A stretch of 41,610 bases of DNA from Alcanivorax sp. (GTDB lineage Bacteria > Pseudomonadota > Gammaproteobacteria > Pseudomonadales > Alcanivoracaceae), in NCBI GenBank assembly GCA_013823245.1, contig PNLU01000019.1:1-41610 (forward strand). Direction: 5' to 3'. The translations under genes were made by a program, and so were the position numbers. Each line of letters begins with the position of its first letter. The first letter of the stretch is position 1. Below the pieces are notes generated by a model. It searched no databases, had not been told where the DNA came from, and saw only the letters and a program-made list of their open reading frames with translations. Below, piece by piece: positions 17,149 through 39,434 of the stretch.

Positions 17149-17159
17149 GGGGTTGGTAT

Positions 17160-20100
17160 TCAGCGCTCGGTTCTGAAGATCAGATCAATCGCGTTCTCTT
17201 TGGAGTTGCTGCGTGTTTCCAGGCTCAGGCTGCGGCTCAGGGTGTAACGCAACATCACGGTGTTCAGCGCTTCGAACAGCCCGACGCTGTAGCGCAGATA
17301 GAGGCGTGAGGAAATCTGTTTGCCCAGCATCAGGGCGGTGTCCTCGAATTCGCCCTCCGTGTCCACACCCAGTTCCAGGCCCAGGGTCTGGCCAAGGCGA
17401 TCCGTGATGAATTCGCCGCGCTCGATGCCGTACAGGGCAATGGCCTGCATGATCATTACGGCGTCGGCGTCAGAGCCGCTGTCCAGAGGGCGGCCGGTGA
17501 GCAGGAACGACATGGCTTCGGTTTCTTCCATGCTGGGTTCCGAGAAGACGCGCGAGCGCGGGTCCTGCAAGGTGCCACCGATCTGCAGGCCGGCGCGCAC
17601 GTTGTAGGCAGTGACGATGCGTACGGCCACGATGTCCAGGCCCGGATTGTCCGGTGGGCCCTGGAAGATCAGCGTGCCGCGTTCCACATGCAGGTTCTGG
17701 CCGTAGGCGCGGTAGCGGCCGTCTTCAATGCGGATTTCGCCGATCAGGCGCGGCGTGCGCTCGGGCTTGTCCTCGATGCGTACGTCGCCCACAAAGCGCG
17801 CCTGCAAGCCGAAGCCTTCGATGCTCACCCGGTTGCCCAGTCGCACGGTGACCTCGGTGTCCACCTGCCAGGGGGAGCTTTCATCGGGTTCGTCGCTGAC
17901 GATGATTTCATCGCGGGATACCGAGACAGCCTGCTGGGGCAGGTCGCGGGGTTCGAAGCGGGCTTCCGGCACGGTGATGTCGCCGCGTATCGTGACCAGA
18001 TTGCGGGCCACACGGATATCCAGGTCCGGGTTGATCAGCACTCTGGCGTCGGGGCGTTGCACGGCCAGGAAGTTTTCGCCGCGCACTTGCAGGCGCACCG
18101 GCCAGGGCAGAGGTTCGCGGGTGTCGAGCACGCCGTCCAGATTCAGTGTGCCGTTGCCCGAGGTGACCTGACCAGTGAGCGTCAGGTCGCCGCCGCGCTC
18201 TGCTTCGGCCAACAGGCGGATATCAGTCAGCGACAGGCCCACTTCCGGCACGTCGGCGGCGGCCTCGTCGAGCAGCAACTGGCCGCTGAAGCGGGGGTCG
18301 GCCACGGTACCGCGCAGGGTCAGGTCGCCGCGAATGCGGCCGTGGATGTTGCGCAGGTCCGGCACGAACACTTCCACCCACCCCAGGTCATCCAGATGTG
18401 TGCTCAACTCGCCATCCAGGCGTGTGTTGTCGCCGTCCAGTTCGGCGCTCAGTCGGGCGTGGGTGCCGCTGGTATCGTCCACGTCGAAGTGCGCCTGGCT
18501 GGTCAGTTGGGTACCGTCCAGGTTCAGGTGCGCGGAGAGGCCGCGCCAGGCCAGTTCGTAGGGTTCGTCGCGGCCGCTGGACAGCGCCATGCGGCCCTCG
18601 CTCACTTGCAGGTCGGCTTCGGCGGTGTTGTGGCCGTTGCGTTGCTGGAAGCGGGCACTCAGGTTGATCAGGCCTTCGAGTTCGGCGGTGTCTTCGGGCA
18701 GTTCGCGGGCCAGGTAGGCCAGCGACAGCTGGGTCAGGTCCAGGCGGGCGTCGATCGGGCCATCGGCGCGCCAGCTGCCATCCAGGCACAGGCGGCTGTC
18801 TTCCGCCACCAGGCACAGTGGCGCCAGGTGGGCGGCTTCGGCCGAGGCGCTCAGCGCCACGGGGCGATCCAGGGCCCAGAGGCCGGAAATCGGGCTGTCG
18901 ATCTCCAGGGCTTGCAGCATGCCTTGCCAGGCGCGCAGTTCTTCCAGCATGCCGGAGGCGGCGCCGCGGGTGCTCCCCTGGGGGGCGATGATCGACCAGG
19001 TGACACTGTGTTCGAGCGCATTGCCGTCGCCGCTCACCGAGACCTGCTCAAGCAGAACGTCGCCGTCGCGGGTCAGTGTGCCGGTGCCCAGAGCCAGGCG
19101 CATCAGCGGGTTGTCCGGGCCGTTGGTGGCGTCGGCGACCAATGACAGGTCATGCAGACGCCAGGCGGCGTAGCCGACCTCGTCGCTGTGGGCGCGGGCC
19201 TCCAGCACCGGGTCGTTGCGGGTGCCGTGCACGCGGGCGTCCAGGGTCAGGCCGCCATGCAGGTCCGGCCACAGGGCGCCCAGGTTGTCGCCTGCCAGGC
19301 TCAGGCTCAGGTCCAGGCGTTGGCCTGCGCTGCCGCTCAGGCGCAGGCGGTTGTCGCCAGCGCGCAGGGTCAGGTCACTGCGCAGTCGGGCGTCGCTGAA
19401 GGCCTGATCCAGGTGGTGGTTCAGGGACAGGGTGCCGCCACCGTCCAGGCGCTGCCCGCGTACTTCACCGCTGAGGCGCTCCAGGGCCAGGTCCAGGGTC
19501 AGGTGTTCGTCTTTCAGGGTGCCTTGCACACGGGTGTCCAGGGCCAGCCGGCCGGGCAGTTCGGCAATAAACAGCGCTGGATCAACGTCGTGGACGCCCA
19601 GTTGCAGGTCCCAGCTCAGATCCGGAGCCCAGCGCACATCCCCTTGCAGGGCGATGTGGCTGTCGGCCACCTCCAGCCGCGCCTGCTCCAGATGGGCCGC
19701 TTCAAGGTTGCCCCGTGCTTGCACCGCCACGCCGATGGCGGGCAGGTCCGGCAGGGTGGTGCCGCTCGCCAGTTGCAGACGGTACTCGTCCAGGCTGCCG
19801 TCGATGCTCAATTCGCCGTCGGCCAGCGCGAGGGCCTGGCCATCGGCGCCGTACAGGGTGAAGGCTTGCCACTGGTTCTGCAGATCAAACGACAGCGGGG
19901 AGTCGAAGGGGCGCAGGCTGCCCTCGCTGCGCAGGATGACCGGGGCGTGCAGGCGGTGTACCAGAGTCGGTTCGGCCAGTGTACCGCGCACACGGGCATC
20001 GGCATGGGCCATGAGCGGCGTATCCGGGTCGCTTTTGGGCTCGCTCAGCGCGGCCTTCAGGGCGTCAGGCAGCGGGGCCTGCCAATCAACCCAGGTGTCC

Positions 20101-22683: not shown

Positions 22684-23271
22684 TCATGACGGATCGTGTG
22701 AGGGATCATCGGTATAGTCGCGATAGTCACGCGCATAGTCTGTCGCGCTGGGACGTTTCTTCAGCCGCCGCTGCAACGTGCGGCGGTGAATGCCCAGTGT
22801 GCGGGCGGCGGCCGAGATATTACCGTCGTGGTCGTCCAGCACGCGCTGGATGTGTTCCCACTCCAGTCGTTCCAGAGACGGTGGGGCACTGGGCAGTGCG
22901 GGCGTCGTGGCCACATCCTGATGGCTCAGGGCGGCCAGGATATCGTCCAGACTCGCGGGTTTGGTCAGATAGTTATGGGCGCCGCGGCGGGTGGCGGTTA
23001 CCGCTGTCGGGATGCTGCCGTAGCCGGTCAGCACCAGTACCCGGCAGGCAGGGGAATGGCGCAGGATCGGCTCGATCAGGTCGAGGCCGTTATCTTCGCC
23101 CAGGCTCAGGTCCAGAATCGCCGCATCCAGGGGCCCGGGATGCTGTGTCAGCCAGGCCAGGCAGCCTGCGGCATCCGCAGCACAGTCCACGGTAAAGCCT
23201 CGACGGGCCAGCAGTCGCTGCATCTGGGTGCGCAGGGCGGTGTCATCTTCCACGACCAGCAGGTGCTGCAT
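22684..23271 (-). CDS. RegA/PrrA/RoxR-like response regulator
   Basis: The 195-residue protein has a receiver domain (residues 1-120) with the acidic pocket E8-D9-D10, phosphoacceptor D54 in ILDLSLGEDNG, and the conserved Lys in YLTKPAS. A Fis-type helix-turn-helix near residues 147-172 (GNISAAARTLGIHRRTLQRR) matches the RegA family, whose members control respiration and redox-linked genes. It is extended by about 20 Asp/Tyr-rich residues at the C-terminus (YARDYRDYTDDPSHDPS), which is unusual. It lies nine bases downstream of the kinase gene, so the two form one transcription unit. Target genes cannot be inferred here. Confidence 0.88.
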   Translation of the reverse strand: MQHLLVVEDDTALRTQMQRLLARRGFTVDCAADAAGCLAWLTQHPGPLDAAILDLSLGEDNGLDLIEPILRHSPACRVLVLTGYGSIPTAVTATRRGAHNYLTKPASLDDILAALSHQDVATTPALPSAPPSLERLEWEHIQRVLDDHDGNISAAARTLGIHRRTLQRRLKKRPSATDYARDYRDYTDDPSHDPS

Positions 23272-23280
23272 GGGGCGCTC

Positions 23281-24486
23281 TCAGGGGTTGTTGCGGCTGG
23301 GCAGGCTGATGCGCGCCTGGGTCCAGCGGCGGTCAAAATCCAGGGTCAGGGTGGCGCCCAGGGCGGCCAGACTGGTTTCCACCAGGGCCAGCCCGATGCC
23401 CAGGCCATCGCGGTCGCGCCGGGCGGTCTGGCGCGGGCCATCATCGCTGACCTGCACAAGGATAGCATCCCCGTCGCGACGGCAGGCGATCTGTAACCGG
23501 CTGGCTCCGGCGTCGCAGGCGTTGTAACCCAGATTGGCCAGCACCCGCTGCCAGGTGGCGATATTGTCCAGCACCGGATCGTCCGGCCCCTCCCAGGACA
23601 CCCGCATCGACGGTGCCAGATGGCGCAGCGTGGAAGCCAGCTCCTGGCTCAGTTCTGACAGGGGGCGGGTGGCAGTGTGGTCTTCGGTGTTGCCCGCAGA
23701 GGGGCGCAGCAAGGTGGCGATCCGGCGGCTCAGGGCACTGATCTGGGCAAGATCCTCACGACAGTCCTCCGGCAGGTCATTGCGCCCGGCCAGGTCGTCG
23801 GATAGCAGCAACAAGGTCGACAGCGGTGTATTCAACTCATGCGCCCGGTCGGCCAGGGTGGCGCCCACCTGGTACATGCGTTCGCGCTGAAGTGCCAGCG
23901 CCAGCGCGGTGCCCTGATGGCGCAGGCTGCGCTGCTGGCTTTGCCGCAGCAGGTGGCCGAGGCCGGTCAGCACCACCACCACCAGACTGAACGACAGCCA
24001 CATTCCCACTCCGTGGTCCGGGTGCATGTCGTGGGTCAGGGCATGCAGGTGCGTGCCGTGCCCGGGAATCTGGTGCCAGTGCAAGGTCAGACCATAGCCG
24101 GCGATGGCGATCAGGCTGTGCCCGGCGCTGGCGGCCAGCGGCATGGCCATGGCCGACACCAGCACCGGCAATAGCAGGTAGAAAGCGAGCGGATTGGTGG
24201 AGCCGCCAAGCTGGTGGAGCAACGCCAGGAACAGCAACTGGTCGAGCAGCACTTCCAGCCACAACAGCGGCCATTGCTGGCGCTCGGGGCGATTGCGTGT
24301 GCCCAGAAACAGCAGAGAGGGCAGCCACAGCAGACCCAGCCAGAACAGCGCCAGCACTGTGGGAATCGGGGAGGCGGCCTGCATATCGGCCACCAGAAAC
24401 AGCAGCCCCAGGGCGGTCACCAGGCCCCCGCGCAGGTAAACCAGACGGCGACGCCAGGTGCGGGGGTCGTTCCAGTGGCTCAGCAT
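23281..24486 (-). CDS. RegB/PrrB/RoxS-like membrane sensor histidine kinase
   Basis: The 401-residue kinase has about six N-terminal membrane helices, including the periplasmic-side motif GGSTNPLAFYLLLPV. This corresponds to the GGxxNPF heptapeptide that binds ubiquinone in RegB, with Leu replacing Phe. The phosphoacceptor His is H216 in AHELNTPLSTLLLLSDDL. The ATPase domain has an N-box (LANLGYNACDAG) and G-boxes (VSDDGP, GLGIGLALVE). The redox-active Cys that follows the H-box in RegB is not at the usual place; the nearest is in PEDCRED. ATG (complement of 24484-24486) is preferred to a TTG 30 bases upstream; neither has a strong ribosome site. Confidence 0.85.
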   Translation of the reverse strand: MLSHWNDPRTWRRRLVYLRGGLVTALGLLFLVADMQAASPIPTVLALFWLGLLWLPSLLFLGTRNRPERQQWPLLWLEVLLDQLLFLALLHQLGGSTNPLAFYLLLPVLVSAMAMPLAASAGHSLIAIAGYGLTLHWHQIPGHGTHLHALTHDMHPDHGVGMWLSFSLVVVVLTGLGHLLRQSQQRSLRHQGTALALALQRERMYQVGATLADRAHELNTPLSTLLLLSDDLAGRNDLPEDCREDLAQISALSRRIATLLRPSAGNTEDHTATRPLSELSQELASTLRHLAPSMRVSWEGPDDPVLDNIATWQRVLANLGYNACDAGASRLQIACRRDGDAILVQVSDDGPRQTARRDRDGLGIGLALVETSLAALGATLTLDFDRRWTQARISLPSRNNP

Positions 24487-24626
24487 GGCGGTATCCCGGT
24501 CGAGGTAAAACAGCAAGCTATTCTAGCGGTTTGCGGGAAAGGTGGGGTGCGGCAAATTGCCCTGTTGGTGTATCCATGTCAGCAAGGTGGGGCGTACGGC
24601 ACGATGCCGTCGTAGGCCGGGCAGAC

Positions 24627-24778
24627 TCAAACGTTACGGGTGGCTACGCCCTGAAGCAAATCACCGGCAAAGCCAGGCAGTTTGGGATGACGCCAACGGC
24701 GCAGGTCGGAGATATCAAAGTCGTGGTCGGCCAGCAGGCTGCCGGTGTCACGGGTCAACTGGCAGCCGCAGGCCAGGG
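24627..24778 (-). pseudogene. Orphan 3' fragment of a SAM-dependent methyltransferase gene
   Basis: Read on the minus strand, this encodes only the C-terminal 50 or so residues of a methyltransferase (LACGCQLTRDTGSLLADHDF ... LPGFAGDLLQGVATRNV), with an intact stop at 24627-24629. The same segment ends the complete gene at 30301-30918 with four replacements in 45 shared residues. The 5' part is missing: homology stops abruptly near 24777 where the AT-rich Rhs upstream region begins. It is most likely the original 3' end of the resident gene, cut off by arrival of the Rhs module. A short frame running through it from 24848 is an accident of the junction. Confidence 0.8.
24652..24776. repeat. 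Left copy of the direct repeat bounding the Rhs module
   Basis: These 125 bases align without gaps to 30323-30447 (offset 5671). I count 13 mismatches, about 90% identity. Most differences are silent in the methyltransferase reading frame. Confidence 0.85.
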
Positions 24779-24959
24779 CTGATTTCGTGATTTTCCTGTA
24801 TTGAGGCATGGTTCCTACTTTTTTCTTTCCGTAATAATATATTTCCACTCGAAGGCAACTAAGATGAGCGCCTCGAATGTGCTCCGGCTTTAAGATTCAT
24901 GTGTATGGGGTAATTCGATAATTCGAATTCGGATGGATTTCTCGTAAAAGGACTTTGTT
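24779..24959 (+). promoter_or_regulatory. AT-rich upstream region of the Rhs gene
   Basis: This is the left edge of the foreign segment. It is A/T-rich and holds a TAATAATAT stretch (about 24831-24839) that could serve as a -10 region. An ATTCGA/TTCGAAT cluster near 24912-24930 contains the palindrome ATTCGAAT. A good AAAAGGA ribosome site at 24946-24952 lies seven bases before the Rhs ATG. The bases just left of the pseudogene (24517-24626) hold only a small hairpin, ACGGCA/TGCCGT at 24596-24610, and no gene. Confidence 0.4.
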
Positions 24960-27900
24960 ATGACCCCCTTAATTTCAAAGGCGGCACTACTGTGCTGTCG
25001 GACTTTCGCGCTATTATTTTTCCTACTTCCTGCTATATCGCTAGCAGTTCTTTTCGATCCGATGCATTACGCCACTCCTCCTTCATATGTTGATGAAGGC
25101 CATGCCTATGAAGAGATCCCCGGCGAAATAATTGATAAACGGCACGGGACTGTATCTTGGTCTATAAAGGAGGGGGCTTTAAAGGGAAGATATGGGTTGG
25201 ATATTCCTATAATTAGGAGCTTCGGTTCTGGCCGGAGCGGACCAAAGCACTTTTCTAACTGGGAGCTTGAACTGCCGAGAGTCGAGGTGTCCGTATCTCC
25301 CCGAGGAGAGTCTGTAGGTGACATAAATGGACTTTCAGCTTGCAACAATCCCTACTCGCCTAGTTTCAAGAATTGGTCATCGGGGGGAGGTGGACTTACC
25401 GTTCCTGGCAACATATGGGTGAAGAGCCCTCCGATGACCTTGAGCGTCCCCGGCTACGGCGTAATGGATATTCTGAGAAAGCGTGAGGGTGACTCGCGGT
25501 TCCCGGAAAGTGCTGTATGGGTCACCACGGATAACTGGTTCCTAGAGTGCCTGGAAGATGAACCGGGGTTTAGGGCGTTCTCTCCGAATGGGGAAATATA
25601 CACTTTTTCGGAAAGAGCCCAAATCGCGGGAGTGTGGTGGTCTATTCATTCCTTCGGCGGTCATGTCACTTATTACGCCAGTAAAGTAGAGAATCAATTT
25701 GGGGATGCTATAAAGTTTGATTACGAATTGCATTATGGAGAATATGGAGAGATGCCGTCCAGCATCCGGAACTGGCTAGGAAATAATATTGTTCACTCCC
25801 ATAGGCCTCTATTGTATCGAGCTTATTTATTAAATAACGGGGGAATGGAGGGGGCGTTGGAGCTGATGTCCATTGATTACTCTAGTATTTCCTCTTACCC
25901 GACCATTGAGAAAATCACATTCAATGAATTTTCTGATTATAATTACGTTGGCTCCGCTGTTTCTCCTTACAGAAAAACGGAGATTACATATGTATACGAT
26001 ACAACATATCATCCTGTATCGAGGTATTGTCATTTCCTGGAGAGGTCAGCGAGATCAGATTGTGAGCAGGGAAAAGATTTTTCACGGTTAAACCTATCAG
26101 CTGTTCGGTATCCTGACGGAACCGAATCCAGTTATTATTACTCAGGGCCAGTAGTAAATAGTAGCTTTGATGGGATAGGTTCTGGAGGTGCCCATCTGGG
26201 GATTTCTTCGTTAGTTCATAGATCTGGGTTATTGGTAGATTATGAATATCAAAAACTAGATTGGAGAGTGGTAAAAGACACCAGCTTGAGTGGGTGGTCG
26301 CCGGCCATTAGTAGAAGAAGTGTTGTTGATATAGCGAGACATATGGAAGGGGCTGACTCCAGTGTCTGGATGCACACTGACTACAATATAAGTAGGGAGG
26401 GAAACCAATACTCACGTACAATTGTTAGCGGTGGTGGTCGTGAGTCTTCGTATCGGTACGATCGAATACTATCCTCCACTACGTATGGCAGGCTCATGCG
26501 TGAGGATAGGAGAATAGATGCTAACGACTCGCTGACCATAACATATGACTGGGATACTATTCTTTACAATGACGCATCTTATGGAGCGACGGTAAATAGA
26601 AATAAGGTTGTATTATCTAAAGTTTTGATTAGCGGCGGATTCGAAAAGTTGTATGATTATAATGAGTACGGCCATTTAACTAATGCAGTGGAGAAAGGGG
26701 TTTCTCCTGAAGGGAGAATAGAAAGAGAGAGAAAGATATCCTATTTTCATCCATATTATGCATCTGGAGGAAGTTATTATATTTTGGGGCTTAAGGATGG
26801 TGAGTGGTTGGATGAATACAATATCTATAGTGCTGAGTTCAACTGGCAAGGGAGGCCGCTTAGAGTTGCCGTTGATGGTAAGCAGCAGAATTTTGAGTAT
26901 CTGATTAGTGATAGTGATTCCCCCTACGCTTCCTTTCATTCAGGAGTGCAACAACTCCATACGACGAACTCTGTCGATTTGCCAAATACAGGCTTGGTTG
27001 GCCGAATTATTTGGGATAATGGCAGCGAGCATCAAGTGACGCTATCGGCATATGGGGGAGGGGTGCCATCAAGTGTGGCATATTCTGATGGGTCTTTTAT
27101 AAATCGCTCCGTCTTGACATCAGGAAGAGTGGTTCGTGATATCAACCACCTCAGCGTTTCAAGAAATTATCAATATGACTCTGCGGGTAGACTGATTAGT
27201 AATGTTTCTGATGTGGTGAACGGAGTTGTTGATGAACATTATATTGACTGGATCACCCCATTTTATAGAGTTCGCAGGCATAATGGTGTGGTCACGACGG
27301 AGAAATTTTATGGTTCTGGCTTGCTAGGGTTAAAGGAGGTTGGAGACATAGAATATCCTGCCTCTCATCCATACGGGAGTGTTTGGCGAGAGTCTTATTC
27401 TTATGATCAGTTTGGAAGTTTGACATTGCGTTCCATTAACAATTATAGAGTTGGTTATTTTTACGATGGTCTGGGCAGAAAAATAATTGAGAATGACACT
27501 TACAAGGGAAAAATTAATGAATATTGTTATTATATAGAAGGCGTCTCGACCTCAGACTGTGCGGGAATGTCGGATTCTCCGGTTTTTACGGCCGTCGCGA
27601 CAAAAACGACACGCGTTCATGGTAGGCCGGTAATGAGGTGGCGTGTGTATGATAATGGCGGCTACGATGTTGACAATTTGGCCAACTTTAGATCGTATTA
27701 TATGCAGAGAGCCCACCACAACTTTCCATGGGATGAAACCACGGCAAGAGAGATCGTCATTAGGCGTAATCATTCTCTAATGGCTGAGTCAGAGATTCAT
27801 GCATCTGGGCTGAAGAAAATGTTTTCATACGACGAGTATGGCCGCCTTGCATATCAGTTTGATGCTTCAGAAGGCGTAAGCGCATATTCTTATAATCCGG

Positions 27901-29789
27901 ATGGTACCAACTCCCACGTCCTTTTATCAGACAGGTTGACAAGTTATCAGTATAACATGTACGGCGCGGTTAGAAGCGTTTCAGTTAATGGTTCGATGAT
28001 AAAGGAATATGATTATTTTCCGGGCGGCCTTCTTCGAAGTAGCAATAATCACGAGTCAGGCGTTGAGGCTCGGTTTGAATATCTCGCAAATGGACTGATG
28101 AAGGCAGAAGAAATCTCTTTGGACGGCTATTCCTCCAGATTGTTGTATGATTATGACACTTACGGGAACCTAGCTAGCTTGGCTTATCCTTCTGATAGAG
28201 GCTATTCTTATTCTTACACGGCAAGAGGCCTGCCCGCCGGTGTCGGAGCAGTGGGTGATGTTACTGAATTTAATAACTGGGGTGCGATCCAGAGTATGGA
28301 GTATGGCCCTATAAGTCAGAAAGTGTCTTTCAGGCCTGATGGCTTGGCTGGAGCGGTTAGAACCCAATTGATTGGCGATGGAAACATTTTTCTGGATAGA
28401 AGTTACGATTACGACATGTACGGAAATAAAACCAATCTGCTTGACAGAATTGATGGCTCCGATTCGACTTCCCTTCGTTACGATGCTTCTGACCGGTTGA
28501 TTTTTTCGTCACATGCCGGAGTGGTTACCAGTTATGGCTATGCTGACTCTGATGATATTATGACTGTTAGACGCGATCTTTCTGACGGAGGCGTACACAG
28601 TGAACGTTATAGATATACTTATCCAGGTCGCCTCTCACTTTGGACAGTGGCAGGTCAGCACAAGAGTGTTTCTCATGATTCCGTCGGCCAAGTTACAGGA
28701 GTAGGCGCTATATCTATTGGCTACTACTCCAGCGGATTGACTAAGTCAATATCCGGCTCAGATGGTGTATCTACCTTTAGATACGATGCCAATGGGAAAT
28801 TGGTTCATTATGTTGACGAATCTGGTGTTGAAAGACATTTTATGCACAGCACAGTTCTAGGTGCAAAGATTTATAAGAGAAATATTACAGCTGATCGAGA
28901 GGCCGAGTATTTATATCTTGGGTCTAATCGGGTGGCCCGTATAGAAAGAGTTGGTGCGAGCGCTGCAACCTTTTCTCCTGCAGATAATCTGGGTATTGAT
29001 GCTGGCCTCGGTGCTGTACATCAGAGCATTAACTATAATATCGGCCACGAGGGGAATATTACATATTACGTTAATGATATGAATGGTAGTGTTCTATATG
29101 AAGTTTCAGAGGACGGGGAAGTTATCCGGAGTAGGAGGTACGGCCCTTATGGTGAAACTCGCGCCGAGTATAATTCGACAGAAGAGCGGATGCTTCACGG
29201 ATACGCTGGTGCTATCGAGTATCAACAGGGGCTAATTGGAATGGGCGTAAGAGTCTACTCGCCAGAGCTTAGGCGGTTCCTGTCTCCAGATCCTGTGTCT
29301 TATCTGTCATCTGGTAGAGATACAAGATTCATAGGGCGGTACCATTATGCGTACCACAGCCCGTATATGTACGTTGACCCAGACGGTAAGGCCGCTATGG
29401 CTGTTTACGCACTCGCGCTTGGCGCGATAGGTTATTCTGTTTATCAGTTGCACGATTTCTTCAAAAGCAGTGCCGAAATTGCTGATGCGGGCATTACGAA
29501 GCGAGCGGAGATGACTGCTGCTGATGTGAGTAGAATTTTTGCATCTGGTGCTCCGGGAGATGCGATGGAGGCGCAGCGACTTTACCACGAAAACAGGGTT
29601 TGGGCTGCGAACGCAGCGCAGAGCATGGCGGGGGATGCTTTCGTATCTTTCTCGGGCCTGACCTTTAATGCACCCTCTAGCGCTTGGGAGGCAATCGCTT
29701 CTTCGGGCGTGGGCACTTTCATAAATTTTTATGTTGGTGATGATCTCAGAGTAGATGTTGATATCCCGGGGAATCGGGAGGTTAGGTAG
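24960..29789 (+). CDS. Secreted Rhs/YD-repeat protein with variable C-terminal domain (probable polymorphic toxin)
   Basis: The 1609-residue protein starts with a Sec signal peptide (hydrophobic residues 16-29, cleavage probably after SLA at 29). Most of the chain is YD/RHS repeats, clear at residues 739 (YDSAGRLI), 957 (YDEYGRLAYQFD) and 1275 (YDANGKLVHYVDESG). The Rhs core ends with RRFLSPDPVSYL (from about residue 1438) and the junction SPYMYVDPDG, matching PxxxxDPxG, with DPDG at 1473-1476. The 133-residue tail after it starts hydrophobic (AAMAVYALALGAIGYSVY), then becomes polar and helical, and matches no toxin family I recognise. The N-terminus resembles WapA-like secreted YD proteins more than type VI cargo; no VgrG or PAAR gene is nearby. 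Codon use (AGA, AGG, ATA, TTA) and low GC mark horizontal origin. Confidence 0.88.
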   Translation: MTPLISKAALLCCRTFALLFFLLPAISLAVLFDPMHYATPPSYVDEGHAYEEIPGEIIDKRHGTVSWSIKEGALKGRYGLDIPIIRSFGSGRSGPKHFSNWELELPRVEVSVSPRGESVGDINGLSACNNPYSPSFKNWSSGGGGLTVPGNIWVKSPPMTLSVPGYGVMDILRKREGDSRFPESAVWVTTDNWFLECLEDEPGFRAFSPNGEIYTFSERAQIAGVWWSIHSFGGHVTYYASKVENQFGDAIKFDYELHYGEYGEMPSSIRNWLGNNIVHSHRPLLYRAYLLNNGGMEGALELMSIDYSSISSYPTIEKITFNEFSDYNYVGSAVSPYRKTEITYVYDTTYHPVSRYCHFLERSARSDCEQGKDFSRLNLSAVRYPDGTESSYYYSGPVVNSSFDGIGSGGAHLGISSLVHRSGLLVDYEYQKLDWRVVKDTSLSGWSPAISRRSVVDIARHMEGADSSVWMHTDYNISREGNQYSRTIVSGGGRESSYRYDRILSSTTYGRLMREDRRIDANDSLTITYDWDTILYNDASYGATVNRNKVVLSKVLISGGFEKLYDYNEYGHLTNAVEKGVSPEGRIERERKISYFHPYYASGGSYYILGLKDGEWLDEYNIYSAEFNWQGRPLRVAVDGKQQNFEYLISDSDSPYASFHSGVQQLHTTNSVDLPNTGLVGRIIWDNGSEHQVTLSAYGGGVPSSVAYSDGSFINRSVLTSGRVVRDINHLSVSRNYQYDSAGRLISNVSDVVNGVVDEHYIDWITPFYRVRRHNGVVTTEKFYGSGLLGLKEVGDIEYPASHPYGSVWRESYSYDQFGSLTLRSINNYRVGYFYDGLGRKIIENDTYKGKINEYCYYIEGVSTSDCAGMSDSPVFTAVATKTTRVHGRPVMRWRVYDNGGYDVDNLANFRSYYMQRAHHNFPWDETTAREIVIRRNHSLMAESEIHASGLKKMFSYDEYGRLAYQFDASEGVSAYSYNPDGTNSHVLLSDRLTSYQYNMYGAVRSVSVNGSMIKEYDYFPGGLLRSSNNHESGVEARFEYLANGLMKAEEISLDGYSSRLLYDYDTYGNLASLAYPSDRGYSYSYTARGLPAGVGAVGDVTEFNNWGAIQSMEYGPISQKVSFRPDGLAGAVRTQLIGDGNIFLDRSYDYDMYGNKTNLLDRIDGSDSTSLRYDASDRLIFSSHAGVVTSYGYADSDDIMTVRRDLSDGGVHSERYRYTYPGRLSLWTVAGQHKSVSHDSVGQVTGVGAISIGYYSSGLTKSISGSDGVSTFRYDANGKLVHYVDESGVERHFMHSTVLGAKIYKRNITADREAEYLYLGSNRVARIERVGASAATFSPADNLGIDAGLGAVHQSINYNIGHEGNITYYVNDMNGSVLYEVSEDGEVIRSRRYGPYGETRAEYNSTEERMLHGYAGAIEYQQGLIGMGVRVYSPELRRFLSPDPVSYLSSGRDTRFIGRYHYAYHSPYMYVDPDGKAAMAVYALALGAIGYSVYQLHDFFKSSAEIADAGITKRAEMTAADVSRIFASGAPGDAMEAQRLYHENRVWAANAAQSMAGDAFVSFSGLTFNAPSSAWEAIASSGVGTFINFYVGDDLRVDVDIPGNREVR

Positions 29790-29790
29790 A

Positions 29791-30261
29791 ATGAAGCAGA
29801 ATATTATGCTCGTCCTTGTTTTTTTACTTGGCTGGTCTTTTTATTTTTTTTCTAGTTATGATGGGTATAGGAAAATATCTTTTCTTTATTATACATATAG
29901 AAATGGTAGTGAAGTTAACGAAAATGGTGTCTGTTTGAGGCTGGCTTCTCCATGGGTAATAAGGTCGAGGCCTCATGAAGGGTACAAATACTACGACATT
30001 ATGATGGCGGATCTTAATCGTGAAACCATTCTTCTGGTGACATATGACCCTAGGGCTGAGACGGCTGATAGTGTGCTGGGCCAAGTGGACGCATTGTACT
30101 TTCAGTATAAAGGGAGAAATCAAGCCATGCTCATAAGCGACGAGCTATCTGTCTTGTTCGATTCGCTGGTTGGCGGGTATTTTTTTGGCACTGATCGCCG
30201 TGCAATTCAAGAGTTTTCGATCTATCTGGCGGAAAAGGAGGTAATTTCCCGGGAATGCTGA
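29791..30261 (+). CDS. Small membrane-anchored protein, candidate immunity partner of the Rhs protein
   Basis: The gene starts one base after the Rhs stop, so the two are surely co-transcribed. The 156-residue product has an N-terminal hydrophobic anchor (MLVLVFLLGWSFYFF, about residues 6-20). A soluble domain of about 130 residues follows, rich in Tyr and Arg (YRKISFLYYTYRNG, then YDIMMADLNRETILLVTYD). I recognise no family. Position directly after the variable tail of an Rhs protein is where immunity genes usually lie, and a membrane anchor would suit protection in the periplasm or at the inner membrane; both points are inference. Composition is as AT-rich as the Rhs gene. ATG at 29791 is favoured over earlier in-frame codons inside the Rhs gene. 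Confidence 0.65.
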   Translation: MKQNIMLVLVFLLGWSFYFFSSYDGYRKISFLYYTYRNGSEVNENGVCLRLASPWVIRSRPHEGYKYYDIMMADLNRETILLVTYDPRAETADSVLGQVDALYFQYKGRNQAMLISDELSVLFDSLVGGYFFGTDRRAIQEFSIYLAEKEVISREC

Positions 30262-30273
30262 GGTGATATCACC
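30262..30273. repeat. Perfect 12-bp palindrome after the candidate immunity gene
   Basis: GGTGATATCACC begins right after the stop codon at 30259-30261. It lacks a T tract, so it is not a typical terminator. It lies about 50 bases inside the right end of the foreign segment. Confidence 0.4.
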
Positions 30274-30300
30274 GTAGGCAACTTGTGAGGCACGTGTGGA

Positions 30301-30918
30301 TTACTGGATTACCGCCACACCTTGAAGCAACTCACCGGCAAAGCCGGGTAATTTGGGGTGACGCCAACGGCGCAGGCCGGAGATATCGAAACCGTGGTCG
30401 GCCAGTAAGGTGCCGGTATCACGGGTCAACTGGCAGCCGCAGGCCAGATGGCGCCACAGCGGGTTCAGGCCGTGTTGCACGCGGCGGGTCAGCGGGCGTT
30501 CGCTTTGCACATGTTCCAGCACCAGCAACTGGCCATCGGGGCGCAGCACGCGGGCAACTTCGCGCGCCGCAGCCTCGCGATCAGGAATGGTGCAGAACAC
30601 CAGGCAGGCGATCACGGTATCAAAGTGGTGGTCGGGGTAGGGCAGTGCCTCGGCACCGGCCTCGACCAGATGAAAACGCTCCGGCTGCGGCAGTGCTTCG
30701 GCTGCGGCTCGTGCTTTCGCCAGCATGGCGCCGCCCGGCTCAATACCGTGTATTTCCGTGGCGGCCGGGGTGTAGCGACCGAAGTTGGCGCCAGTGCCGA
30801 CGCCCAGTTCCAGCACGCGACCGCGCGCCCCGGCCAGCAGGGCGTCGCGATCACGGTTCAGGGGCCGGGTGGCCCAGTCCAGCAGGGGCGGGAACAGCTT
30901 GTCTTCGTACCAACCCAT
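30301..30918 (-). CDS. Class I SAM-dependent methyltransferase (UbiE-like fold)
   Basis: The 205-residue protein has the SAM motif I VLELGVGTGANFGRY (about residues 35-49), the acidic IHGIEPGGAM, and the later motifs FDTVIACLVFCTIPD and EVARVLRPDGQLLVLEHV. This is typical of methyltransferase domain 11 proteins related to UbiE and METTL7. The substrate is unknown. Its start codon overlaps the stop of the upstream TPR-like gene by one base (TAATG), so the two are coupled. Its 3' end is duplicated on the far side of the Rhs module, and this copy may be a hybrid whose last 40-50 codons came with the module. Confidence 0.85.
   Translation of the reverse strand: MGWYEDKLFPPLLDWATRPLNRDRDALLAGARGRVLELGVGTGANFGRYTPAATEIHGIEPGGAMLAKARAAAEALPQPERFHLVEAGAEALPYPDHHFDTVIACLVFCTIPDREAAAREVARVLRPDGQLLVLEHVQSERPLTRRVQHGLNPLWRHLACGCQLTRDTGTLLADHGFDISGLRRWRHPKLPGFAGELLQGVAVIQ
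30323..30447. repeat. Right copy of the direct repeat bounding the Rhs module
   Basis: This is the 3' end of the intact methyltransferase gene and the partner of 24652-24776. Homology begins close to the gene's stop and ends inside the reading frame, so the repeat coincides with the C-terminal coding part and not with a tRNA or a classical attachment site. Confidence 0.85.
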
Positions 30919-32156
30919 TACTTGACGTCCGGCAGCCTGTATTCGTGCGGGTTTTCCATCATGTGCATGTTCAGCGGTGGACTCAACACGTTGGTCAGGT
31001 TGTGGTCGGTGACCCGGCTGAAGCGGCGGCGATGGCGCTCGAAGGCACGGAAGCTGCGGTAGTGCTGGTCGTACAGGTGCGCTTCCTGAAGCCGTTTGAA
31101 GGCGTACATGGTATCCAGCGCGTCCATCGACCAGGTCGGAGTGTAGCGCGTGGCCTTGTTGAGGTAATCGATGGCCTGATTGAGGTCACGCTTGCGGCTC
31201 ATGTACATGATGGCGTTGGCGTATTCATAGTTCAGGATCGGAATATCCGGTGCCATCTTGAACGCCTTGCCGAACGACTCATCCACCACGGTGCTGCGGG
31301 CACCGTAGGTGATACGGCCAGTGGCACGTCCCACGCGGCGCATGATGTTGGCATCCACTGCGGCACGGAAAGCGTGGCCCAGCGGGTGGTCCGGAATCAG
31401 TTCGACGATTTCCTCGGCGTTATCCTTGATGCGGCCGATATAACCGCGCACCACGATTACCGGCACCGGTGATTCTTCCGCAATCCGGGCGATGGCATAG
31501 GCGTAGCCGAGTTTGGTGAAGGCCACCAGTTCACTGGCAATCGGATCATCGGCGGCGCGTTCGATCAGGTCGATATGCTCGCGCACGCGGTTGGCCACGT
31601 CCTGCAGCATCATGTACTTCTCGGTCTGCCGGTCGGCCAGATAGATGGCATAGGTAATCTGCGCAAACATGGCCGGATACAGGCCCATGATGCCCAGCTT
31701 CAGACCTTCTTCCCGGGCATCCTGGAAATCGCCGCGCAGGAACAGGCGCCATACCTCGACAAGGCGACGGCTGAGGTCTTCATAGCCCTGGAAGTTCTCG
31801 ATGCCGTTGAGCATTTCAGGGTAGTTGGAACCCATGTATTCCAGATAGCCAGCGGACGGGAACGGCGCGCGCACGCCGATCATGAATTCATCCCAGCGCT
31901 CTTCGATTTCGGCATGTGAGTAGTCGAAGAATCGCTTGTTGTAGGGGACTTCGTTCCACGGCACCAGGAAGATGCGCTCATCCACCGGGATGTCGATATA
32001 CGAGAGTTCCTCGGCGGTGACTTCGTCGCTCTCGTCATCGGGGCCATCATCGTCAATCAGGCCGTAACTGAGGCGGGGCAAGGCGGAGAGGGCAAGACTG
32101 AAAGCAAGCAATAGCGCGAGCCAGCGGGCTCCTGCCGAAACAGAGGTCGTATCCAT
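30918..32156 (-). CDS. Exported TPR-like protein of unknown function
   Basis: The 412-residue protein has an N-terminal signal peptide or signal anchor (WLALLLAFSLALSALPRLSY, about residues 12-31), then an acidic linker (DDDGPDDESDE). The rest is mainly helical and looks like degenerate TPR units: GDFQDAREEGLKLGIMGLYP, then AQITYAIYLADRQTEKYMM, and DLNQAIDYLNKATRYTPTW. I do not recognise a named family. It would act in the periplasm, perhaps as a scaffold. It is translationally coupled to the methyltransferase gene that follows, which suggests a shared function. Confidence 0.6.
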   Translation of the reverse strand: MDTTSVSAGARWLALLLAFSLALSALPRLSYGLIDDDGPDDESDEVTAEELSYIDIPVDERIFLVPWNEVPYNKRFFDYSHAEIEERWDEFMIGVRAPFPSAGYLEYMGSNYPEMLNGIENFQGYEDLSRRLVEVWRLFLRGDFQDAREEGLKLGIMGLYPAMFAQITYAIYLADRQTEKYMMLQDVANRVREHIDLIERAADDPIASELVAFTKLGYAYAIARIAEESPVPVIVVRGYIGRIKDNAEEIVELIPDHPLGHAFRAAVDANIMRRVGRATGRITYGARSTVVDESFGKAFKMAPDIPILNYEYANAIMYMSRKRDLNQAIDYLNKATRYTPTWSMDALDTMYAFKRLQEAHLYDQHYRSFRAFERHRRRFSRVTDHNLTNVLSPPLNMHMMENPHEYRLPDVK

Positions 32157-36848: not shown

Positions 36849-36905
36849 ATTGCGCCTTTCGCGCCCCCCGGGGTCGCGCCGTCAGATCCAGCGGAACGAG
36901 ATGTT

Positions 36906-38681
36906 ATGCGAAGCCATTACTGCGGTGACTTGAGAGCCTCCCACGACGGGGAAACGGTGACATTGTGTGGGTGGGTACACCGCCGCCGTGACCATGGCGG
37001 GGTGATCTTCCTGGATCTGCGTGACCGTGCCGGGCTGGTGCAGGTGGTGTTCGACCCGGATACCGTCGAGGCGTTTGCCCTGGCGGATCGCATGCGCAGC
37101 GAGTATGTGGTGCAGGTCACCGGCCGCGTGCGCCTGCGTGACGAGGCCGTGCGCAACAGCCGCATGACCACCGGGGACATCGAGGTGCTGGGCACCGCGC
37201 TGACCCTGCTGAACACGGCGGAAACACCGCCGTTCGAGCTGGACGAGTACAGCCAGGCGGGCGAGGAAGTGCGTCTGAAGTACCGTTACCTGGACCTGCG
37301 TCGTCCGGATGTGCTGGCCAACTTCCGCTTCCGCTCGCGTCTGACGGCCGCCGTGCGCACGGCGCTGGAAGCCCAGGGCTTCATGGATGTGGAGACCCCG
37401 ATCCTGACCAAGGCGACGCCGGAAGGCGCGCGCGATTATCTGGTGCCCAGCCGCACCCACCCGGGCAGCTTCTTTGCGTTGCCGCAGTCCCCGCAGCTGT
37501 TCAAGCAGTTGCTGATGGTGGCGGGCTTTGATCGCTACTACCAGATCGCCAAGTGCTTCCGCGATGAAGACCTGCGCGCCGACCGGCAGCCGGAATTCAC
37601 CCAGATCGACCTGGAAGCCTCCTTTGTAACCGAGGAAGACGTGATCCAGGTGGCGGAAACCATGGTGCGCCAGGTGTTCAGCCAGTTGTTGCAGGTCGAG
37701 CTGCCGACCTTCCCGCGCATGCCGTTTTCCGAGGCCATGCGCCGCTTTGGTTCCGACAAGCCGGACCTGCGTATTCCGCTGGAGCTGGTGGATATCGGTG
37801 ACCTGCTGGCCAAGGTGGAATTCAAGGTGTTTGCTGGCCCCGCCAATGACCCGAAAGGGCGCGTGGCAGCATTGAAGGTGCCGGGTGGCTGCGAAATGAG
37901 CCGCAAGGAGATCGACGACTACACGAAGTTTGTCGGTATTTATGGCGCCAAGGGGCTGGCCTACATCAAGGTCAATGACCTGGCGGCGGGCAACGAGGGT
38001 TTGCAGTCCCCGATTCTCAAGTTCCTGACCGACGACGCCATCGCTGGCATTCTGGAGCGCACCGGCGCCCGCACTGGCGACCTGATCTTCTTCGGCGCCG
38101 ACAAGGCGAAGGTCGTCAACGAAGCTCTGGGTGCGCTGCGCGTGCGCGTGGGCCACGATCGCAATCTGGTCGAGGGCGACTGGGCGCCGCTGTGGGTGGT
38201 GGATTTCCCGATGTTCGAGGAAGACGACGAAGGTCACTGGGCGGCACTGCACCATCCTTTCACCATGCCCTCCTGCTCGCCGGAGGAGCTGGCTGCAAAC
38301 CCGGGGGCGGCGCTCTCGAAAGCCTACGACATGGTGCTCAACGGGACCGAGCTGGGTGGCGGCTCCATCCGTATTCATGAACCGGCCATGCAGCGAGCTG
38401 TGTTCAAGGCGCTGGGCATCAGCGACGAGGAAGCGGAAGAGAAATTCGGCTTCCTGCTGGATGCGCTCAAGTTCGGTGCACCGCCGCACGGCGGCCTGGC
38501 CTTTGGTCTCGATCGCATGGTGATGCTGATGACCGGATGTGAATCGATTCGCGATGTGATCGCCTTCCCGAAAACCCAGACAGCGGCCTGCCCGCTGACC
38601 CAGGCTCCGGCCGAGGTGGCGCCGAAGCAACTGCGTGAGCTGGGCATCCAGTTGCGCAACCTGGAAAAGAAGGACGGATAA
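36906..38681 (+). CDS. aspS: Aspartyl-tRNA synthetase (bacterial type)
   Basis: AspRS charges tRNA-Asp. The 591-residue protein has the N-terminal OB-fold anticodon domain ([20 protein letters not shown]), class II motif 1 (near [20 protein letters not shown]) and motif 2 in [20 protein letters not shown]. The bacterial GAD insertion lies about residues 280-420, and motif 3 is [13 protein letters not shown]. Whether it is discriminating or also charges tRNA-Asn cannot be settled here. ATG at 36906 gives the canonical MRSHYCGDL start; the open frame extends 29 codons upstream through the promoter and is rejected. yebC starts 12 bases after the stop. Confidence 0.97.
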
Positions 38682-38693
38682 TACGAGGTTGGT

Positions 38694-39434
38694 ATGGCCG
38701 GTCACAGCAAATGGGCAAACATCAAGCATCGCAAGGCGGCGCAGGACGCCAAGCGCGGCAAGGTCTTTACCAAGCTGATTCGTGAAATCACCGTGGCTGC
38801 CCGGCTGGGCGGCCCGGAGCCGAACGACAACCCGCGTCTGCGGGCTGTGGTGGACAAGGCACTGACCGCCAACATGACCCGCGACACCATTGATCGCGCG
38901 ATCAAGCGTGGCGCGGGCAGTGACGACAATGCCGACATGTCGGAGATCACCTACGAGGGTTACGGCCCGGGCGGTGTGGCGGTGTTGGTGGAAACGATGA
39001 CCGACAACGTCAACCGTACTGTCTCTGATGTGCGCCATGCCTTTACCAAGCACGGCGGTAATCTGGGTACCAATGGCTCGGTGGCCTACCTGTTCAGCAA
39101 GCGTGGCGAAATCTTTCTGGAGCCGGGCCCGGACGAGGAGGCCCTGCTTGAGGTGGCCCTGGAAGCCGGTGCGGAGGACGTGCAGACCCACGACGATGGT
39201 TCCTTTACGGTGATCACCGCTGCGGACCGCAGCTTCGGTGAGGTGGTCGATGCCCTCAAGGCGGCGGCCTTCGAGCCCGCCAACGCCGAGGTCACCATGC
39301 ACCCGAGCACCGAAGCCGATGTGGATGCGGAGATCGCGCCCAAGGTGATGAAGATGATCGATCACCTGGAAGACCTGGATGACGTGCAGAACGTCTACAC
39401 CAACGTGCGCTTTCCTGATGATTTTGAAGGTTGA
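38694..39434 (+). CDS. yebC: YebC/PmpR-family regulator or translation factor
   Basis: The 246-residue protein has the canonical start [20 protein letters not shown] and the conserved segments [33 protein letters not shown] and [18 protein letters not shown]. Members have been described both as DNA-binding regulators (PmpR) and as factors that relieve ribosome stalling; sequence alone does not separate these. It sits between aspS and ruvC, the common gammaproteobacterial order, and is probably co-transcribed with aspS. Confidence 0.95.

What the first reader, a model, noticed from the sequence alone, without database searches (positions are those of the whole stretch)
24627..30450. Rhs module flanked by two diverged copies of a methyltransferase gene's 3' end
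The AT-rich Rhs/partner module lies between 24652-24776 and 30323-30447, which align without gaps for 125 bases with 13 differences. The right copy is the end of an intact methyltransferase gene; the left is an orphan fragment. Only about four of the differences change residues in the shared reading frame. The copies therefore diverged mostly while both were functional, not after a duplication here. The simplest model is that the module came from a related strain with its own version of this gene's 3' end, recombined into the resident gene, and displaced the old end. That would be an insertion that restores its target gene, like integrative elements, but in a protein gene and without a visible integrase.
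Basis: partly seen in the sequence, partly recalled or inferred. Interest (0 to 1): 0.75.

Follow-up and report, generated by a model that had tools for sequence, protein, structure and literature searches.

The report
Rhs cassette replacing a gene's end
A foreign Rhs (toxin-like) gene cassette sits in a conserved methyltransferase gene and seems to have brought its own version of the gene's last fifth, so the gene stays whole while the original ending was pushed aside; known gene-restoring insertions look alike, but no integrase was found here.

Summary
In detail: 24643-24776 (L) and 30314-30447 (R) align without gaps over 134 nt with 16 mismatches; L is an orphan, R ends an intact methyltransferase (MT) gene. 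All six congeners held have an empty site. L is followed by the native stop and kinase leader, so L is the resident end; R ends differently (..GVAVIQ*) beside module DNA, so R looks imported. L/R synonymous divergence (0.52) is like that to the nearest species held (0.51-0.74). Had L been non-coding that long, 28-34 changes are expected; at most 9 are seen, so in-place duplication is rejected under neutrality. The four amino-acid differences are best placed on L. The donor was thus at species, not strain, distance. Best reading: DNA carrying the Rhs pair plus a foreign MT 3' end, probably a circle, entered by one crossover, perhaps in the 29-nt identical block at the junction. This is the logic of e14/icd and of Rhs tip displacement, with a housekeeping gene as homology arm and no recombinase found. 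The catalyst is unresolved; a decayed tandem MT pair is unlikely but not excluded, as no strain-level relatives were available. No second case appeared at 23 other Rhs loci, several cut by contig ends.

The parts
24627..24776 (-). L: displaced resident 3' end of the methyltransferase gene (50 codons, native stop at 24627-24629)
   Evidence: Aligns with G002 from 24776 to 24637, stop aligned, then kinase side from 24565 on; the 4 non-synonymous L/R differences are best assigned to L, two by G002, two by the other congeners
24748..24776 (-). 29-nt block identical in L and R (gene positions 472-500) at the insertion junction; proposed crossover zone
   Evidence: P(first 29 of 134 clean) 0.015, but the block has only 1 mismatch to G002 too, so partly protein constraint
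24777..24959 (.). Left end of the module, AT-rich, no long ORF; no integrase remnant seen by eye in six frames
   Evidence: in 46 family genomes only short weak matches outside the own one (best E 0.004)
24960..29789 (+). Rhs gene, 1609 aa, Rhs core at residues 1394-1476, about 130 residues after it
   Evidence: NCBIfam TIGR03696 3.1e-12, 46.8 bits against a cut-off of 32.5; distant tblastn matches to Rhs proteins
29791..30261 (+). Small partner ORF, 156 aa, N-terminal hydrophobic stretch; presumed immunity protein (inference)
   Evidence: No family match (PADLOC with a start 12 codons earlier); single-sequence model of low confidence, not used
30262..30313 (.). Right end of the module; supplies the last 3 codons and stop (V-I-Q-stop) of the closed gene
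   Evidence: Similarity to L starts at 30314 and to G002 at 30319
30314..30447 (-). R: 3' end of the methyltransferase gene in use, inferred to be imported
30419..30447 (-). R copy of the 29-nt identical block
30301..30918 (-). Methyltransferase gene (205 aa) closed with the R end
   Evidence: positions 1-600 of 618 align to G002 at 86%
23281..24516 (-). Histidine kinase gene, native downstream neighbour; ATG probably at 24486
   Evidence: Pfam HATPase_c above cut-off; ATG from comparison with congeners
30918..32156 (-). TPR-like gene (weak, below Pfam cut-off), native upstream neighbour of the methyltransferase

Best explanation
The 5.5-kb AT-rich Rhs/partner module was imported into a conserved TPR - methyltransferase (MT) - histidine kinase - response regulator locus. 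It came joined to the last ~45 codons of MT from another species of the same clade. It entered as a circle, or an equivalent, by a single crossover inside MT, perhaps in the 29-nt identical block at gene positions 472-500. The MT gene was thereby closed with the foreign end (R), and the resident end (L) was shunted to the far side of the module, still joined to the kinase leader. Shown: the empty sites, the native flank of L, the age of the L/R split. Inferred: direction of import, circle, crossover point, enzyme. Host homologous recombination and a recombinase acting in trans or since lost fit about equally.
For: Empty site in 6 of 6 congeners, MT stop to kinase ATG about 82-108 nt; in the rest of the family 24 of 29 further genomes examined have the kinase within 1 kb of MT. 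The 19-kb stretch of G002 held aligns on both sides of the module, right flank ending at the R end, left flank starting at L. L keeps the native stop alignment (GVATRNV* vs G002 GIATRRI*) and leader; R ends GVAVIQ* with no native flank. dS L-R 0.52, L-G002 0.505, R-G002 0.738, MT first 158 codons R-G002 0.641. An L orphan since the split would have 28-34 changes in 129 nt; at most 9 seen, P 1e-4 to 4e-6. The four non-synonymous differences are best placed on L, none on R. R has 2 TTA of 8 leucines, L none, 17 neighbouring ORFs 7 of 1052, P 0.0012. The MT 5' part plus L would make a whole resident gene, so no target sequence need have been lost.
Against: No integrase found in the module, and none beside MT in the (cut-short) family list. 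No circle or donor seen. The pattern search of 84,980 species, which reaches close relatives only, found no close relative of the Rhs protein, so nothing shows the module is mobile. The 29-nt identity is weak evidence (a run that long anywhere by chance: 0.25). The TTA test is post hoc. G002 alone leaves two of the four amino-acid changes unassigned. The genome is a 196-contig draft, so a strain chimera cannot be ruled out.
Confidence: 0.7

Rival explanations
1. Decay of a tandem pair: an old duplicate MT gene stood between MT and the kinase, both in use, until the module landed and deleted the front of the second one.
For: Would also give slow, mostly synonymous divergence between L and R and leave L joined to the kinase leader.
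Against: The DNA search of 46 family genomes shows no second full MT copy; the six congeners have one MT and a short gap to the kinase. Needs a duplication about as old as the species split and kept only here.
Confidence: 0.12
2. Sub-case of the import model: an integrase-driven element of the e14/icd kind whose integrase was lost or acted in trans; the 29-nt block is the att core.
For: Same architecture and similar size (134 nt here; 163 bp and a pseudo icd' in the e14 passage); the block has a weak inverted repeat with 8-nt spacer (8 of 11 positions).
Against: No integrase or remnant seen in the module; the same inverted-repeat score occurs at several other places in the gene; the MT motif pattern was not found in viral contigs nor the MT protein in phage records.
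Confidence: 0.3
3. Sub-case of the import model: homology-facilitated illegitimate recombination of linear DNA, with a homologous anchor in MT and a non-homologous join at the left end.
For: Proposed in print for T6SS effector modules (passages read); the own genome has a ComEC-like competence protein, as have 10 of the 14 control genomes.
Against: As the passages describe it, incoming DNA replaces resident DNA between anchor and join; here, if the MT 5' part is resident, nothing was lost and both copies start at the same gene position.
Confidence: 0.2
4. Import the other way round: R is resident, and L with the kinase side came in with the module.
For: Either end could in principle be foreign; divergence from G002 does not clearly set one flank apart (dS TPR 0.53, kinase 0.57, response regulator 0.88).
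Against: R lacks the stop region and leader seen in congeners while L has both; amino-acid changes fall on L and TTA codons on R.
Confidence: 0.08
5. Assembly chimera of two strains joined at the 29-nt block.
For: Draft of 196 contigs, 92% complete; a shared short stretch lies at the junction.
Against: Both flanks otherwise follow G002, and R passes into the module without a shared stretch.
Confidence: 0.06

Closest known systems
Cryptic prophage e14 in icd of Escherichia coli; passages in PMC6379469 read; phage 21 in the same gene is recalled
   Same: Element supplies the 3' end of a protein gene, keeps it whole and leaves a displaced, slightly different resident end (163 bp) at the other junction.
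   Different: e14 enters by site-specific integration of a prophage; here no recombinase gene was found, and the cargo is one Rhs pair.
Rhs C-terminal tip displacement by homologous recombination with a circular intermediate (Jackson et al. 2009, PMC2935791, passages read)
   Same: Proposed single crossover of a circle, no integrase, old end shunted to a silent position.
   Different: There the arm is the Rhs core and the tip is exchanged; here the arm is an unrelated housekeeping gene and a whole Rhs pair is gained.
Effector-immunity displacement in Vibrio cholerae T6SS clusters (Kirchberger et al. 2017, PMC5361080, passages read)
   Same: Toxin-immunity module gained by recombination without integrase, old part kept as orphan.
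   Different: It happens within T6SS clusters and the orphans are immunity genes.
pcp-mediated circles of cfr(C) cassettes in Campylobacter coli (PMC10770853, passages read)
   Same: A gene copy acts as the homology for a circle to form and to enter elsewhere.
   Different: There circles were detected by inverse PCR and transferred; pcp sits at several sites and the cargo is resistance genes.

Membership tests
Gene-restoring integrative element (e14/icd kind) | Target gene kept whole by an element-borne end; resident end displaced to the other junction | tested here: met
   Anatomy met; that R is the element-borne end is inferred from flanks and codon pattern
Gene-restoring integrative element (e14/icd kind) | Identical core at both junctions | tested here: inconclusive
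   29 nt identical at the junction edge, but the block is conserved in G002 too
Gene-restoring integrative element (e14/icd kind) | Element codes for a site-specific recombinase | tested here: not met
   ORFs, Pfam, six-frame reading of the ends; own tyrosine recombinases lie on other contigs; serine recombinases in the genome not searched
Gene-restoring integrative element (e14/icd kind) | Empty site in relatives | tested here: met
   6 of 6 congeners
Rhs polymorphic toxin-immunity pair | Rhs core domain | tested here: met
   TIGR03696 46.8 bits, cut-off 32.5
Rhs polymorphic toxin-immunity pair | Toxic C-terminal domain of known kind | tested here: inconclusive
   No Pfam match to the tail
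Rhs polymorphic toxin-immunity pair | Cognate immunity gene downstream | not testable with these tools
   Small ORF in place at 29791-30261; function needs an experiment
Rhs polymorphic toxin-immunity pair | Delivery system for the Rhs protein | not tested
   No search made
Rhs tip displacement array | Repeats flanking the new part are Rhs core | tested here: not met
   The flanking repeats are MT gene ends
Recombinase-free circle carried by a homology arm | Circular form detectable | not testable with these tools
   Needs inverse PCR

The most novel reading that the evidence does not exclude
Rhs pairs of this kind travel between species as recombinase-free units that carry the diverged 3' end of a conserved housekeeping gene as a portable homology arm: entry restores the gene, and the flanking copies allow clean exit that returns the resident end.
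Probability: 0.12. Interest if true: 0.7.

Novelty: new variant of a known kind. Interest (0 to 1): 0.42.

Why it matters
The papers whose passages I read treat how Rhs tips and effector modules are swapped at existing loci; how a whole Rhs pair reaches a new chromosomal site is less clear from them. A gene-restoring insertion that can be placed in time and shows no recombinase gives a concrete structure to test: whether an 88% similar, 134-nt gene end is enough to bring in 5.5 kb without harming the target gene.

Tried and rejected
In-place duplication with later divergence: rejected under a neutral rate.

Other cargo at the same junction: 35 relatives with MT were examined (6 congeners, 29 others); 10 of the 46 family genomes gave no MT match by DNA and were not examined (two of them, G040 and G025, also none by protein at E 1e-30). 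30 of 35 have the kinase within 1 kb of MT. Of the 5 others, G018 is cut by its contig end; for G020, G044, G035 and G024 I read ORF starts only and saw no integrase by eye. No tyrosine recombinase stands beside MT among those listed for the family, but that table was cut short. More distant order members were fetched but mostly not examined for cargo; two of them were listed.

Same architecture at 23 other Rhs-bearing loci, by self-BLAST on the plus strand, repeats of 60 nt or more: flanking repeats were flagged in L114, L117 and L119. L114 and L119 are Rhs sequence by my reading (for L119), L117 has a contig-end overlap of 87 nt and a 94-nt 72% match that I did not inspect. So no duplicated host gene end was found in 23, one match uninspected, several loci cut by contig ends.

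Relatives of the module: 9 candidate stretches and one weak relative in 84,980 species; in the family, distant Rhs matches in 12 genomes besides the own; N-terminal part weakly in 2 of 368 class genomes and 3 of 389 order genomes besides the own; none in viral contigs by the patterns used; 88 plasmid records with distant Rhs matches, none covering 80%; partner none in plasmids; no PDB relative. Left flank plus left module end in plasmids: none. Inverted repeat at the block: not unusual in the gene. Promoter and terminator scans: at chance level. Rfam: none. Partner structure: mean pLDDT 45, not used.

The host leucine count used 17 ORFs chosen by length; at least one (36882-39365) has odd codon usage and may be an antisense ORF. 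The tail tree left out G001.

Paper searches; none of the listed titles and abstract starts describes an Rhs pair flanked by a housekeeping gene's duplicated end, but only the passages were read.

Full report
What is there. The window is a whole 41.6-kb contig of a 196-contig draft genome. On the minus strand runs a conserved order: TPR-like gene, methyltransferase (MT), histidine kinase, response regulator. Between MT and the kinase lies an AT-rich module on the plus strand: an Rhs gene (24960-29789) and a small partner ORF (29791-30261). Two copies of the MT 3' end flank it, L (24643-24776) and R (30314-30447), 134 nt, 16 mismatches, no gaps.

Which end is native. In six of six congeners MT is followed by the kinase after a gap of about 82-108 nt. 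The nearest, G002, was held over 19 kb and aligns with the window on both sides of the module: one side ends at the R end, the other starts at L. The order is otherwise the same, except for about 0.7 kb that only G002 has, opposite window 17152-17162. L runs in frame into a stop aligned with that of G002 and on towards the kinase leader, which is about 50 nt longer than in G002. R loses similarity 3 codons before its stop and is followed by module DNA. So L is the resident end, and R most likely came with the module. In the rest of the family, 24 of 29 further genomes examined have the kinase within 1 kb of MT; of the other five, four have other genes there and one is cut by its contig end. 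Ten family genomes gave no MT match by DNA and were not examined.

How old is the split. dS between L and R is 0.52, against 0.505 (L-G002), 0.738 (R-G002) and 0.641 for the first 158 codons of MT against G002; neighbours give 0.53 (TPR), 0.57 (kinase) and 0.88 (response regulator). L and R thus split at about the time of the split from G002. A tail tree of L, R and five congeners puts L and R together against G002 at 82% bootstrap, with nearly equal branches, so the donor was probably a species of this clade. If L had been non-coding since then, 28 to 34 changes are expected in 129 nt; at most 9 are seen (P 1e-4 to 4e-6). The four amino-acid differences are best placed on L: two by G002 and two, which G002 alone leaves open, by the other congeners. 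Three lie at positions that are the same or nearly so in R, G002, G006 and G003; the fourth, a serine, is shared with G006. None falls on R. L has since been released from constraint, R has not. R carries 2 TTA among 8 leucine codons, L none, 17 neighbouring ORFs 7 of 1052 (P 0.0012), which hints at time spent in AT-rich company; the test is post hoc.

How it got in. The MT 5' part plus L would make a complete resident gene, so nothing need have been lost: the mark of a circle entering by one crossover. The longest identical run, 29 nt, lies at the very junction (P 0.015 for that place, 0.25 for a run that long anywhere). It has only one mismatch to G002 as well, so it may reflect protein constraint. 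Its length is just under the threshold of 30 bp for RecA recombination that a paper passage quotes. No recombinase was found in the module, nor beside MT among the tyrosine recombinases listed for 46 family genomes, a table that was cut short. The own genome has two strong tyrosine-recombinase matches (open frames of 331 and 204 aa), one weaker and a broken one, all on other contigs; serine recombinases were not searched. A ComEC-like protein is present, as in 10 of 14 control genomes. I cannot choose between host recombination and a lost or trans-acting integrase.

What it resembles. e14 in icd: 163 bp displaced, a pseudo icd' left behind, slightly different end supplied (passages). Rhs tip displacement by circles (passages) and effector-immunity displacement in Vibrio (passages) use similar logic without integrase but with the toxin or secretion locus as arm. 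Gene-mediated circles in Campylobacter (passages) show that a gene copy can serve as a portable arm. Here the arm is an unrelated housekeeping gene. I found no second case at 23 other Rhs-bearing loci (one short match uninspected, several loci cut by contig ends), and the module itself has no close relative in the searches made.

Consequence. The insertion keeps the MT frame and leaves the kinase with its leader, so the locus may tolerate it. The module runs against MT and away from the kinase. This is inference from position.

Verdict. Observation confirmed; main interpretation supported with the donor moved from strain to species; mechanism still open. A single case in a draft genome, with strong precedents: a variant of a known kind.

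Noticed in passing
24627-24809 (-): L reads in frame from an ATG at 24809 inside the module, behind an AGGA, giving a 60-residue ORF: about 10 module residues, then the MT tail. It might be translated; chance is possible.
   Followed up: partly
24566-24636: The part of the kinase leader next to L does not align with G002 and has only short weak matches in the genus.
   Followed up: partly
17152-17162: Opposite this point G002 has about 0.7 kb that the window lacks.
   Followed up: no
L102 843-1441 (G000:C38): A broken tyrosine recombinase near a MutS-like gene in the own genome (the MutS name is recalled from its sequence).
   Followed up: no
L101 4032-5339 (G000:C141): An integrase directly behind a TrpE-like gene (name recalled), no tRNA found on that contig.
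   Followed up: no
L099, L107: Distant relatives of the Rhs N-terminal part (residues about 32-260) whose Rhs core sits in a separate ORF, with what looks like its own signal peptide; in the window both are one protein.
   Followed up: no
L119, L114, L115: Arrays of repeated Rhs cores, in L119 with small ORFs between them, as in tip displacement.
   Followed up: no
22684-24516 (-): Kinase plus response regulator with a Fis-type HTH look like a RegB/RegA-type pair (recalled); the leader keeps a GGCAATTTGCCGCACC-like motif in most of the genus.
   Followed up: no
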